Shown: in pieces, positions 1 to 30,081 of the stretch | How the letters are laid out: every line of letters starts with the position of its first letter | Numbering within the stretch: the first letter of the stretch is position 1 | IMG/VR virus record: IMGVR_UViG_3300030101_003487 | Span: 1-30,081 of that record | Length of the DNA: 30,081 nt | Reading direction: 5' to 3' (one strand) | Source of the DNA: a virus | Notes under the pieces: generated by a model | What the model saw: only the letters and a program-made list of their open reading frames with translations | Told to the model about the DNA's origin: nothing | Database searches by the model: none | Position numbers and translations under genes: made by a program

Positions 1-99
1 GACCTTGGTGGGGCTGGTGCTGCCCGTCAGCTTGACCGTGATGCCCTGCACAATGCCGCGGAAATTGCGGCTGAACCGCTGGAAATCAGGAAGGAAGGA
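1..99. repeat. Terminal direct repeat, left copy (circular contig overlap)
   Basis: These 99 bases are identical to the last 99 bases of the window (29983-30081). The length of exactly 99 and the position inside a gene fit an assembler k-mer overlap on a circular or circularly permuted molecule, giving a unique genome of 29,982 bp. A true short direct terminal repeat of a T7-like genome is the alternative, but such repeats are usually longer and lie between genes. Confidence 0.95.
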
Positions 100-19828: not shown

Positions 19829-20080
19829 TCACCACTCCCCAACGAGGCTGAGCACGTTCTCCAGCTCCTTGACGTCGGGGCTTGTTTCCTCGCTCTCTGC
19901 CCGTGCTGCTGCTGCTGCTTTGCTCCAGTCCAGTACGCGCCAGGCGCAGTCGGCCTGCGCCTTGTTTGGCCTGACGCTGCCCTGGAGGGTGCGCTCAATG
20001 CAGCTGATGGCCTCTGGGGCGAGCTTCGCCACAGCCTCAAGGAGCTGCTGCTCTGTCATGGTCCCGCTGGTCTTTGGCAT
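19829..20080 (-). CDS. terS: Terminase small subunit candidate
   Basis: 83-residue protein, first gene of the leftward unit and immediately upstream of terL. The sequence is helical: residues ~8-28 (TEQQLLEAVAKLAPEAISC), then a helix with an AWRVLDWSKAA pattern typical of small terminases of environmental podoviruses, and an acidic C-terminus (SPDVKELENVLSLVGEW). It would recognise the packaging site and regulate TerL. AAGGGG is placed 8 nt before the ATG. The assignment depends mainly on size and position. Confidence 0.6.
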   Translation of the reverse strand: MPKTSGTMTEQQLLEAVAKLAPEAISCIERTLQGSVRPNKAQADCAWRVLDWSKAAAAARAESEETSPDVKELENVLSLVGEW

Positions 20081-20100
20081 ACGTAATACCCCTTATAGAG

Positions 20101-20127
20101 CAAAGTCTTGACGATACAACCCGTCCC
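20101..20127 (+). repeat. Outer inverted repeat, left arm
   Basis: CAAAGTCTTGAC, four non-conserved bases (GATA), then CAACCCGTCCC. It matches the complement of 20281-20307 at 23 of 27 positions. The TTGACG inside (20109-20114) could serve as a -35 for a rightward promoter, but the -10 at 17 bp spacing (CATTGT) is weak. Confidence 0.9.
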
Positions 20128-20132
20128 TATCC

Positions 20133-20162
20133 ATTGTACCCTATCCATGGGCTTCTCAACAA
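20133..20162 (-). promoter_or_regulatory. Candidate leftward (late) promoter
   Basis: On the minus strand TTGTTG (20157-20162) is followed after 18 bp by TACAAT (20133-20138), a reasonable sigma-70-like pair. The predicted transcript start near 20126 lies inside the outer ACCCGTCCC motif, and the inner motif abuts the -35. This is the layout of a repressed or activated promoter. A second pair, TTGTAT (20114-20119) and TATAAG (20092-20097), lies nearer the small terminase gene. Confidence 0.4.
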
Positions 20163-20246
20163 AGGGACGGGTCTTGGTGAGATTCTACTGGAGTGAAAAA
20201 CCAAGCAAATTTGGGAAAGTCTCTGGAAGCCCTAACCCGTCCCTTT
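20161..20246. repeat. Inner inverted repeat pair
   Basis: AAAGGGACGGGT (20161-20172) and ACCCGTCCCTTT (20235-20246) are perfect 12-bp inverted copies around the AT-rich centre of the control region. They share the ACCCGTCCC core with the outer pair. Confidence 0.9.
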
Positions 20247-20280
20247 TGCTACGAACCCCACTATAGGCGGTTCTTGAATG

Positions 20281-20307
20281 GGGACGGGTTGGAGGGTCAA
20301 GACTTTG
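20281..20307 (-). repeat. Outer inverted repeat, right arm
   Basis: GGGACGGGTTG, four non-conserved bases (GAGG), then GTCAAGACTTTG: the inverted partner of 20101-20127. On the minus strand a TATAGT (20260-20265) lies downstream, with the ACCCGTCCC motif occupying the region where a -35 would be, as at an activator-dependent promoter. Confidence 0.9.
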
Positions 20308-20474
20308 GGCAATTTGGGGGCCTGTGACACAACTATGACATAGATGGGTCCATTGGACCCCTTGCGCCCATTGGCTCCACTGGGTACATGTAGCGTCCAC
20401 CCCGGGGCACCACCCCACCCTTTCAACCTGTCACGCTTTGCAGGTGCTCCGGGGCACTTTCCAGAGAGGACACC

Positions 20475-20552
20475 ATGACCCGTCAGAACCTCGAAGAGTT
20501 CGCCGCTGTTGTCTCCATCTTCATCTGCATGACCCTGTGGATGTTCGCATGA
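20475..20552 (+). CDS. 25-residue membrane microprotein, first gene of the rightward unit
   Basis: A 25-codon frame with a strong AGAGGACA site 2-9 nt upstream of the ATG and an ATGA overlap with the next gene. The N-terminus is charged (MTRQNLEEFAA), followed by about 13 hydrophobic residues (VVSIFICMTLWMF). This predicts a short single-pass membrane peptide. The strong ribosome site and tight coupling argue that it is translated. It may act on the host membrane early, or it may serve only as a leader peptide for coupling. No family is recognised. Confidence 0.6.
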   Translation: MTRQNLEEFAAVVSIFICMTLWMFA

Positions 20553-21829: not shown

Positions 21830-22055
21830 CCGATGGACAAGTGTGCGCGGTGCCCTGTCTCGCGCGGACTCCGATGCCTACCACGCCTCCGAGGACATCA
21901 AGCGAGCGCTCAGCCTGCTGGAAAGAGCCAAGGAGGACCTGCAGCAGGCACAGCTGAATCTCGCGGTAGCCAAGGCGCGCATGCAGAGACTTGCTAAGCT
22001 CGCAGCCGAGCATGGGGAGGAGCATTGTGTGCGCTTCCCCTACGGGGACCAATGA
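21822..22055 (+). CDS. Hypothetical coiled-coil protein, 77 residues
   Basis: Starts at the second copy of GGTGACCGATGG, overlapping the previous stop. Residues ~15-60 form one long predicted coiled-coil (DIKRALSLLERAKEDLQQAQ followed by LNLAVAKARMQRLAKL). No function is recognised. The primase gene begins at its stop (ATGA). Confidence 0.65.
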   Translation: MVDRWTSVRGALSRADSDAYHASEDIKRALSLLERAKEDLQQAQLNLAVAKARMQRLAKLAAEHGEEHCVRFPYGDQ

Positions 22056-24322
22056 CAATGAACGCGCAGCACCCTGACACCCGTGTCCGTTCCGTATGGC
22101 CTACGCCCCCAGAGGGCTGCTGCTACGTGGAGCAGTCCCTCAAGGGTGGGGACTACATCAGCACCGGATACTTCCACCGAGGCGCCGTAGACAATCGGGG
22201 CAGGGGTCGCAGCGTCGAGAACTGCAAGGGGGTCACCTCCCTCTTCTTTGACCTTGACCTTCTCGGCCTGGTCGACTCGGCACGGCTGGCTCGGGGGCAG
22301 GCGCTGCCCGACCGAGCGCAGGACCGCAAAGCCCACATGTATCAGATGCCCGAGGAGCAGCGGCAGGCCTTCCTTGACCTGCTTCTGCAGGATGTGGGTG
22401 GCATCCTCGAATCTGTGATGGGCGCACCGCCGACCCTGACCATCTGCAGCGGGTGGGGCTTCCACTTCCACTATGCTGTCTCGGAGCCCATGCGGACCGA
22501 GAAGGGCGCTCTCACCGAGCTGCATGCCGCAGTTGTGGACGAGTGCAACCGCCAGGCAGCCGAGATGGCGCAGGGCTTCCACCCACCCCTGACCACCTAC
22601 CACAAAGCATACGACCGGACGCACGATGTAGGGGCGCGCCTTGCTCGCGCACCGGGTAGCCAGAACACCAAGTGCAGCTGGCGCATGCAGTCCGTGGATG
22701 TGGTCGGCGCCTCCGATACGCTGCTGGACTCGGACACCGTAGGGCGCCTGCGCGAGCAGTGGAGAAGGCAGGGGCAGCTCACAGCCAACGACAAGGCGAA
22801 GGTCAAGCCCAGCCCCGTGCCGAGCCGGAAGCGACCGAGACAGGCAAAGAGTGTAGACGTAGACTTTCGGTCTCAGCGCCTTGCAGACGGCAGAGCATGG
22901 CAGCAGCTTGCCGATGCCCTCGCACCGGGGGAACGGCTCAAGGTCATCTGCCCGTTCGGTGGTACCTCGGTGGGGTCGGGCTTCTTCCACAGGGAACCAG
23001 ACGGGCGCGCCAGGTACTACAGCGCCCCACAGGCAACCACCTACTGGAATAGCTACCGACCGAGCTCGACTCCGGGCCTGGTTGACCTGCACCGAGCCCC
23101 CCCGAAGAGGGACGGCACAGCGGGCAAGATTCTCAACACAGTGACAAACCTCCACACCATGCTCACCCATGACGGAGCCTTCAACCTGTGGTTTGACGAG
23201 TTCCGACAGCGAGAAATGGACGGACATGAACCCGTAGAAGACACCATCTGGGTGCGGGTGGTGACTCACATGGAAGCGGCCTATGACTGGCAGTGGCGCC
23301 TTGGCAAAGACCTCCTTTTCTCCTCGGTGGAGTTCGTCGCCAAGCAAAACGCCAGGAACCCCGTGCAGGAGTACGTCAAGAGCCTGGAGTGGGACGGCTG
23401 CCCTCGGATTGACCGTTGGCTGATGGAGGTCTGTCACACCGAAGACCTGCCCATCTACCGGGTGTATAGCGCCAAGTGGGTCATCGGCCTGATGGCGCGC
23501 CTCTTCTCGCCTGGGTGCCAGCTTCACACCTGCGCCTTGCTAATCGGGCCACAGGGGTGGGGGAAGTCAAGCGTGTGGCGGGAGTGGGCCAATTGGCCAG
23601 GTCAGGAGGAGCTGTACTCAGACACCCGCTTTAACATCAAGGACAAGGACTGCTATCTGCAGCTCTATGGCGCTCTCATCTACGAGGATGCCGAGATGGC
23701 TGGCAGCAGCACAGCCGACCAGGAGACCCGGAAGGCCTTCATCACCTCGGCTGTGGACCGCTTCCGTCCCCCGTTTGGCCGGAAGATGCGCACCTACCGC
23801 CGCCACACGGTCATCACCATGAGCAGCAACGAGCAGGACGTCCTCAGAGACCGAACGGGCAGCCGTAGGTACTGGGTCATCCAGTGCGCAGGAGAGCGCG
23901 CAGACCTCGCATGGCTCGGGAAGTACCGAGACCAGATGCTTGCCGAGGCATATCACTACTTCCAGCAGGGGCAGGAGTGGTGGCTTGACGCTCAAGAAAG
24001 CGCCTGGCAGCGGAAGGCCAATGGTGAGTTCCAGTACCTCGACTGGTTCACTCAGTGCGCGCAGACGGCCTACGATGCAAACAGGGGGGGCAAGCGCAAC
24101 CGATTTACGGTGGGGGAGTTCGCTGCAGCCATTGACCACAATCTGTCCGCCCAGAGATTCGGCTTGAGCTTAGCTTCTGCCCTGCACTCGGTCGGTTTCG
24201 TTCGGTACCGCTCTGGCGGTGCGAAGCACTACTACAAGCCCGGTGAGCCAGAAGGCGCGGACACTGGAATGCTTGCCATCAAGCGCCTGACCCGTTCCGA
24301 CTTCGAGCAGAACTTTCAATGA
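22052..24322 (+). CDS. Primase-polymerase (AEP) fused to VirE-type helicase
   Basis: 756-residue replication protein. The ATGA overlap sets the start; an ATG 9 codons earlier has no support. The N-terminal archaeo-eukaryotic primase domain shows LFFDLDLL (Asp67, Asp69), SGWGFHFHY (Ser133-His138) and an APGSQNTK motif (Gly202-Asn205) as in PrimPol-type enzymes. The C-terminal part is a VirE-like (PF05272-type) P-loop helicase: NPVQEYVKSLEWDG precursor segment, Walker A GPQGWGKS (499-506), Walker B LIYEDAE (542-548) and the motif-C-like MSSNEQDVLRD with an RDRTGSRRYW sensor region. The middle (~residues 260-330) is a linker with ribbon-like strands. It is the only candidate replicase on the genome, so it probably primes and perhaps extends DNA while unwinding the origin. 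Confidence 0.85.
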   Translation: MTMNAQHPDTRVRSVWPTPPEGCCYVEQSLKGGDYISTGYFHRGAVDNRGRGRSVENCKGVTSLFFDLDLLGLVDSARLARGQALPDRAQDRKAHMYQMPEEQRQAFLDLLLQDVGGILESVMGAPPTLTICSGWGFHFHYAVSEPMRTEKGALTELHAAVVDECNRQAAEMAQGFHPPLTTYHKAYDRTHDVGARLARAPGSQNTKCSWRMQSVDVVGASDTLLDSDTVGRLREQWRRQGQLTANDKAKVKPSPVPSRKRPRQAKSVDVDFRSQRLADGRAWQQLADALAPGERLKVICPFGGTSVGSGFFHREPDGRARYYSAPQATTYWNSYRPSSTPGLVDLHRAPPKRDGTAGKILNTVTNLHTMLTHDGAFNLWFDEFRQREMDGHEPVEDTIWVRVVTHMEAAYDWQWRLGKDLLFSSVEFVAKQNARNPVQEYVKSLEWDGCPRIDRWLMEVCHTEDLPIYRVYSAKWVIGLMARLFSPGCQLHTCALLIGPQGWGKSSVWREWANWPGQEELYSDTRFNIKDKDCYLQLYGALIYEDAEMAGSSTADQETRKAFITSAVDRFRPPFGRKMRTYRRHTVITMSSNEQDVLRDRTGSRRYWVIQCAGERADLAWLGKYRDQMLAEAYHYFQQGQEWWLDAQESAWQRKANGEFQYLDWFTQCAQTAYDANRGGKRNRFTVGEFAAAIDHNLSAQRFGLSLASALHSVGFVRYRSGGAKHYYKPGEPEGADTGMLAIKRLTRSDFEQNFQ

Positions 24323-29745: not shown

Positions 29746-30081
29746 TCACTCCTGCCAGAAGATGTCTGTGGCTGCGAGCTTGGGCGTGCCTGTCGCGTTG
29801 TCCACCTTGGCAAACAGGTACAGGGTACCGTTGCCCGGTCCACCTTGGTCCTGCCAGAGCGGAAGGTCTACCCGGAAGGTAGCGCTCTTGGTGCCCGCAG
29901 TGGTCACCCCTGCCACCAGGTCTGCCTCGGTGTCAGGCACAAGGACCTCATCACCGGCTGCATCTGCACAGACCCGGATGGTGACCTTGGTGGGGCTGGT
30001 GCTGCCCGTCAGCTTGACCGTGATGCCCTGCACAATGCCGCGGAAATTGCGGCTGAACCGCTGGAAATCAGGAAGGAAGGA
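29746..30081 (-). CDS. Junction-spanning structural protein, C-terminal part
   Basis: Continuation of the gene that begins at 204-202 (minus) and crosses the circle junction; together they code for 146 residues ending at 29746. The last codons (WQE, TGA) lie in the ribosome site of the 349-residue virion gene (CAGGAGTGA), coupling the two. Confidence 0.85.
   Translation of the reverse strand, partial: SFLPDFQRFSRNFRGIVQGITVKLTGSTSPTKVTIRVCADAAGDEVLVPDTEADLVAGVTTAGTKSATFRVDLPLWQDQGGPGNGTLYLFAKVDNATGTPKLAATDIFWQE
29983..30081. repeat. Terminal direct repeat, right copy (circular contig overlap)
   Basis: Second copy of the 99-bp repeat at 1-99. Reading through the junction joins the two parts of one minus-strand gene in frame, which supports circularity. 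Confidence 0.95.

What the first reader, a model, noticed from the sequence alone, without database searches (positions are those of the whole stretch)
20101..20307. Dyad-symmetric nested repeats around an AT-rich centre: origin or master operator
Four ACCCGTCCC cores lie in the order plus, minus, AT-rich centre, plus, minus with spacings 45, 71 and 46 bp. Outer arms are a 27-bp interrupted inverted repeat, inner arms a 12-bp one, and both pairs are centred near 20204. This is the only long non-coding region and the divide between the transcription units. The symmetry suggests a protein assembling two identical complexes that face each other, as at a bidirectional origin, or controlling both arms.
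Basis: partly seen in the sequence, partly recalled or inferred. Interest (0 to 1): 0.85.

Follow-up and report, generated by a model that had tools for sequence, protein, structure and literature searches.

The report
Phage replication origin with switchable code
A gap between two sets of phage genes carries four mirror-arranged copies of a short DNA word that most likely marks where the phage starts copying its genome, and relatives keep the layout while changing the word together with one residue of the protein that probably reads it.

Summary
In detail: ACCCGTCCC occurs exactly four times in the record (20119+, 20164-, 20235+, 20281-), as +,-,AT-richer centre,+,- around 20204, far beyond shuffles (score 60; 200 shuffles mean 45.9, max 52).

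Relatives from viral contigs keep the plan and a frame of about 160 bp but change the word: ACCCGTCCC (class A), ACCCTGCAC (B, ancestral, down to about 52% initiator identity), CCCCCCMCT (C), ACCCCACAC (D), TTTACAATGTAAA (remote). Within a genome the copies generally match. Pairing alone would not require that; one sequence reader would.

The likeliest reader is the PrimPol-VirE helicase encoded 1.8 kb away. Its helicase matches SaPI5 PriRep1 (E 2.8e-36), and its C-terminus is a predicted winged helix. Only one of its 756 columns is invariant in class B and changed in both A and C: wing residue 725 (T; K in A; N in C). Eight other phage proteins show no comparable column. Relatives with a similar terminase but no detected PrimPol lack the array.

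I read it as an origin of the SaPI Rep / P4 alpha kind, possibly also an autoregulatory operator. Nothing was measured, and the residue association rests on two evolutionary switches. Verdict: new variant of a known kind.

The parts
20119..20127 (+). core 1 (outer left), ACCCGTCCC
   Evidence: exact match; same position in relatives
20164..20172 (-). core 2 (inner left), ACCCGTCCC on the minus strand
   Evidence: exact match
20235..20243 (+). core 3 (inner right), ACCCGTCCC
   Evidence: exact match
20281..20289 (-). core 4 (outer right), ACCCGTCCC on the minus strand
   Evidence: exact match
20089..20133 (+). outer arm, left (pairs with 20275-20319; holds TTGAC at about 20109 and core 1)
   Evidence: inverted repeat I1, 45 nt, 78% complementary
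20275..20319 (-). outer arm, right (holds core 4 and TTGAC on the minus strand)
   Evidence: inverted repeat I1; TTGAC flanks outer but not inner cores
20161..20172 (-). inner arm, left
   Evidence: inverted repeat I6, 12 nt, 100%
20235..20246 (+). inner arm, right
   Evidence: inverted repeat I6, 12 nt, 100%
20173..20234 (.). AT-richer centre, presumed unwinding element
   Evidence: 56% AT; only 0.09% of 62-bp windows in the record are as AT-rich. The unwinding role is inferred.
22052..24322 (+). PrimPol-VirE (VapE) initiator-helicase, 756 aa; presumed reader of the cores
   Evidence: Pfam VapE-like 1.3e-60; SaPI5 PriRep1 7pds 2.8e-36; AF2 model
24044..24292 (+). C-terminal winged-helix domain (residues 665-747); wing residue K725 is codon 24224-24226
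   Evidence: AF2 models, winged-helix structural matches, class-specific residue
21373..21567 (+). RHH-like protein (judged by eye; no Pfam match), considered and disfavoured as reader of the cores
   Evidence: presumed contact strand YRPRL/FRPRL unchanged across core classes; no Pfam hit
19829..20080 (-). p83, small protein before the large terminase (possible small terminase), considered and disfavoured as reader
   Evidence: no class-specific column
20320..20341 (+). adjacent module TGTGACACAACTATGACA with 11-bp-spaced repeats, kept across most core classes; candidate RHH operator
   Evidence: alignment of relatives

Best explanation
The region is the phage's replication origin. Four iterons, two inverted pairs facing each other around an AT-richer centre in a frame of about 160 bp, are bound by the C-terminal winged helix of the phage's own PrimPol-VirE protein. 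That protein is a self-loading initiator helicase related to SaPI5 PriRep1; it would assemble on the two inverted pairs, open the centre, load as helicases and prime both strands. Because the outer cores also sit just inside TTGAC boxes, binding may in addition repress the divergent genes. Shown: the array, conservation of its plan with change of its word, the homology of the helicase, the predicted winged helix, and the co-change of residue 725 with the core. Inferred: binding, opening, loading as two rings, bidirectional replication and autoregulation.
For: Array present with the same plan in close relatives holding the region and with B-type cores in relatives at about 52-55% initiator identity. 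Copies within a genome share one word although the word differs between lineages. Two independent core switches: A is nested in B and C is a separate branch (tree), each accompanied by a fixed change at wing residue 725 (T to K, T to N). It is the only shared change among 229 PrimPol columns invariant across all class B members; A changed 4 and C changed 8 of these, so 0.14 shared changes expected. Class A's other winged-helix change, S708A, lies in recognition helix 704-714, as does C's H712T. Helicase homology to SaPI5 PriRep1. [quoted passage not shown] TerL relatives with 7 kb of sequence and no detected PrimPol have no convincing array. Recombination and replication genes (ERF, RuvC-like, PD-(D/E)XK, SSB) follow PrimPol-VirE.
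Against: No binding, opening or replication was measured. The residue-725 association has two events, with a chance of about 0.13 that any changed column would be shared, and residue 725 is not sufficient: L113 keeps T with a different core, at 38% identity. In SaPIs the origin lies just downstream of rep; here it lies 1.8 kb upstream, between divergent operons. GC skew peaks near the array in only some genomes and with the sign opposite to the bacterial norm. For L148 and L152, which have PrimPol, no clear array was found. The AF2 full-length model is weak in the helicase.
Confidence: 0.72

Rival explanations
1. Master operator: a phage repressor (RHH-like protein or another) binds the four cores and controls the two divergent operons; no replication role.
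For: Divergent intergenic position; TTGAC boxes flank outer but never inner cores, so outer cores would lie in promoter spacers.
Against: No complete sigma-70-like promoter in the region. The RHH protein keeps its presumed contact strand where the core changes, e.g. L023/L027 versus window, and no RHH column tracks the core. A separate repeat module kept across classes (20320-20341) suits the RHH protein better.
Confidence: 0.15
2. Both at once (a special case of the best explanation, not exclusive of it): the same initiator sites act as origin and as autoregulatory operator, as with many plasmid Rep proteins.
For: Same as best explanation plus outer-only TTGAC boxes.
Against: Promoters not demonstrated; TTGAC missing on one or both sides in several relatives.
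Confidence: 0.4
3. Packaging site (pac/cos) recognised by the small protein p83 before the large terminase.
For: Lies next to p83 and the terminase genes.
Against: No p83 column tracks the core; L113/L115 have a four-copy array without a detected p83, and TerL relatives without PrimPol lack a convincing array. Contig ends fall at varied places and the record has a 99-bp terminal overlap, so there is no fixed end here.
Confidence: 0.07
4. The repeats act as RNA (two hairpins, or one long nested hairpin) in the leader transcripts.
For: The strand folds far better than shuffles, z -6.9 for the whole and about -4 to -5 for single pairs, which any inverted repeat would give.
Against: Pairing needs left and right hairpins, or outer and inner pairs, to match only themselves; instead the copies of a genome share one word through changes of the word.
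Confidence: 0.05

Closest known systems
SaPI Rep / SaPI5 PriRep1 initiator and its iteron origin (staphylococcal pathogenicity islands)
   Same: VapE-type AAA+ helicase homologous by sequence and fold (7pds), primase fused in SaPI5, C-terminal domain recognising short repeats (PMC7581432)
   Different: here a phage genome of about 30 kb with no cultured close relative; origin upstream of the gene between divergent operons; four copies as two inverted pairs in a near-constant frame; core switches between lineages
Phage P4 alpha protein and its origin
   Same: winged-helix origin-binding domain (PMC10516667); primase-helicase fusion that initiates replication (PMC7145576)
   Different: no sequence or fold match to P4 alpha was obtained; the P4 repeat layout was not compared here
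SCCmec Cch2 and its putative origin
   Same: helicase whose isolated C-terminal domain binds repeats of a putative origin (PMC7581432)
   Different: Cch2 needs direct repeats (three iterons), not the inverted ones, and has its primase-polymerase on separate proteins

Membership tests
SaPI Rep / PriRep-type self-loading initiator with iteron origin | VapE/SF3-like AAA+ helicase homologous to SaPI Rep | tested here: met
   Pfam VapE-like 1.3e-60; 7pds_A 2.8e-36; Foldseek best six matches all 7pds
SaPI Rep / PriRep-type self-loading initiator with iteron origin | C-terminal winged-helix DNA-binding domain | tested here: met
   by prediction only: AF2 helices and wing with pLDDT about 90 over the domain; many of the best structural matches are winged-helix proteins, Z up to 6.0
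SaPI Rep / PriRep-type self-loading initiator with iteron origin | Fused primase (AEP) domain, as in SaPI5 PriRep1 | tested here: inconclusive
   N-terminus confident in AF2 but no Pfam match and only weak Prim-Pol fold matches, E 0.3-1
SaPI Rep / PriRep-type self-loading initiator with iteron origin | Repeated short sites around an AT-richer stretch near the gene | tested here: met
   four cores, AT-richer centre, 1.8 kb from the gene
SaPI Rep / PriRep-type self-loading initiator with iteron origin | Initiator binds its own iterons and drives replication | not testable with these tools
   only indirect: co-change of core and residue 725
Operator of the RHH-like protein | DNA-contact residues of the protein change when the site changes | tested here: not met
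pac/cos packaging site | Virion DNA ends at or near the site | tested here: inconclusive
   contig ends vary and the record overlaps itself by 99 bp, but virion ends are not known

The most novel reading that the evidence does not exclude
One wing position of the initiator (residue 725) is the main switch of origin specificity, and lineages have changed all four iterons and this residue together at least twice, creating mutually incompatible origin types among related phages, a phage counterpart of plasmid incompatibility groups.
Probability: 0.3. Interest if true: 0.72.

Novelty: new variant of a known kind. Interest (0 to 1): 0.56.

Why it matters
How an initiator and several copies of its site can change together without losing replication is a long-standing question. 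This uncultivated phage group offers natural before-and-after sets: an ancestral word kept across large divergence and two switches with few amino-acid changes. It makes the question directly testable with a 117-residue domain and short DNA duplexes.

Tried and rejected
BLASTN against phages found nothing. The exact paired-core pattern in IMG/VR gave 14 stretches, of which L003 and L010 were true relatives with two pairs each; the single-pair matches were not pursued. The PrimPol alignment found no relative in bacterial genomes; TerL found two at 61-66% in MAGs, without a convincing array. GC skew was tried as a test of origin position: maximum near the array in several genomes but not all, opposite sign, so not used as proof. 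Helical phasing of same-strand cores was tested: mean close to whole turns but p about 0.01-0.02 on related genomes, so only a hint. L109 scores 57 from a CAG-type repeat whose unit is itself palindromic, judged spurious. Structure search with the winged helix alone gave no match below E 0.1, and no named origin-binding domain was singled out. The SaPI structure and origin papers themselves were not held.

Full report
What is there. The core ACCCGTCCC occurs four times in the record and nowhere else in it, as +,-,+,- at 20119, 20164, 20235 and 20281. Outer and inner inverted repeats share a centre near 20204. The four-copy score of 60 lies far above 200 dinucleotide shuffles (mean 45.9, max 52), and the centre is 56% AT in a 38% AT genome. 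The array occupies the divide between the minus-strand set (p83, large terminase, portal, head) and the plus-strand set (small ORFs, RHH-like protein, PrimPol-VirE, ERF, RuvC-like, PD-(D/E)XK, SSB). The record is an IMG/VR virus of 30,081 bases with an exact 99-bp terminal repeat, and an ORF homologous to a continuous gene in six relatives runs across the joint, so the map is closed; unique length is 29,982 bp.

Relatives. The large terminase brought 50 loci, an alignment of it 80, and PrimPol-VirE alignments further ones. In the close relatives that hold the region the same +,-,centre,+,- plan recurs, but the word differs: ACCCGTCCC in L003/L015, L010 and, with two degenerate copies, L017 (class A); ACCCTGCAC in the largest group (class B); runs of C ending CCCCCC(A/C)CT in L036, L037, L039-L041, L044, L056 (class C); ACCCCACAC-like in L038 (class D). 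A loose common frame ACCCNNCMCT fits these (my reading). Distance from first to last core is about 157-170 bp in the close group and 152-176 overall, while inner positions shift symmetrically in most. B cores persist in L126/L129, L150, L156 and L151, and shortened as TGCACTGT in L143, L149, L146 and L153, all at about 52-55% initiator identity. L150, L156 and L157 have extra copies. L113/L115, at 38%, have four perfect copies of TTTACAATGTAAA at 53/46/53 with direct repeats between. In 13 of 14 B-type records searched, CCCTGCACT is concentrated in this one place, with at most one copy elsewhere.

Why a protein reads it. An RNA hairpin model needs only that paired arms match each other. Here outer and inner, left and right copies share one word in each genome, through several changes of the word. 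Strong folding of the strand is what any inverted repeat gives.

Which protein. Scanning nine proteins for columns invariant in class B and fixed differently in A and in C gave one column of 756 in PrimPol-VirE (residue 725: K in A, T in B, N in C), none in RHH, p83, TerL, ERF, RuvC or SSB, one in portal where A and C share the same residue, and one in PD-(D/E)XK without outgroup data. With more distant class B members added, T725 is still invariant; A changed 4 and C changed 8 of 229 invariant columns, and 725 is the only shared one (0.14 expected). Residue 725 lies on the wing (strand 724-728) of a predicted winged helix, and class A's second change there, S708A, and C's H712T lie on recognition helix 704-714. 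The tree places A inside B and C on its own branch, so the switches are independent, but there are only two. L023, which joins L081 by an exact 114-bp overlap, has a B core, T725 and an RHH protein 87% identical to the window's. So the RHH protein stayed nearly the same while core and wing residue differ. I treat this as good but not conclusive evidence.

Presence and absence. TerL relatives with no detected PrimPol and 7 kb of sequence (L110, L118, L128, L133, L142) give no array clearly above background, and L109 only a repeat with a palindromic unit; L141, with a partial 31% PrimPol match, has none either. L113 and L126, with PrimPol, do. L148 and L152 have PrimPol but no array that I could recognise.

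Mechanism. The helicase is homologous to SaPI5 PriRep1, solved with DNA as 7pds. [quoted passage not shown] P4 alpha has a winged-helix origin-binding domain (PMC10516667). I therefore propose binding of the four cores by the C-terminal winged helix, opening of the centre and loading of two helicases. Everything after the co-change of core and residue 725 is inferred. TTGAC boxes flank the outer cores in many relatives and never the inner ones, so autoregulation is plausible, but no full promoter match exists.

Skew. Detrended cumulative GC skew peaks within about 0.6 kb of the array in three of seven genomes (window, G003, G004), within about 3-4 kb in three more and elsewhere in G014; minima lie 10-16 kb away round the circle. 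The sign is opposite to the usual leading-strand G excess. This is compatible with an origin but not proof.

Standing. No cultured phage is close: the terminase is at most 26% identical to isolates, and PrimPol-VirE below 32% among the rows shown. The kind of origin is known; the lineage, the strict mirrored plan and the natural switches of the word are the new part.

Noticed in passing
window 1-99 and 29983-30081: Exact 99-bp terminal repeat; the record is a closed map although nothing labelled it circular.
   Followed up: yes
window 20320-20390: TGTGACACAACTATGACA with 11-bp-spaced repeats, followed by CCATTGG/GGTACC-type repeats, kept across most core classes; candidate operator of the RHH-like protein.
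   Followed up: partly
window 20125-20148: CCCTATCCAT twice, 14 bp apart, between cores 1 and 2; CTATYCAT or its complement sits at a similar offset in several relatives. Role unknown.
   Followed up: partly
L010, L015, L042 and other relatives, upstream of TerL: Extra sequence, which by eye reads in part like a C5 DNA methyltransferase gene, lies between p83 and TerL in several relatives (seen).
   Followed up: no
L113 and L115, between the four TTTACAATGTAAA sites: Three direct repeats of about 33 bp (CGACTTAGTGG...GTTTTGGT) alternate with four near-palindromes.
   Followed up: no
L150, L156, L157: Seven to eight copies of the B core in L150 and L156 instead of four, and an extended array in L157.
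   Followed up: no
window 20475-20552: A 25-codon ORF for a membrane-like peptide opens the plus-strand set; similar short ORFs appear in relatives.
   Followed up: no
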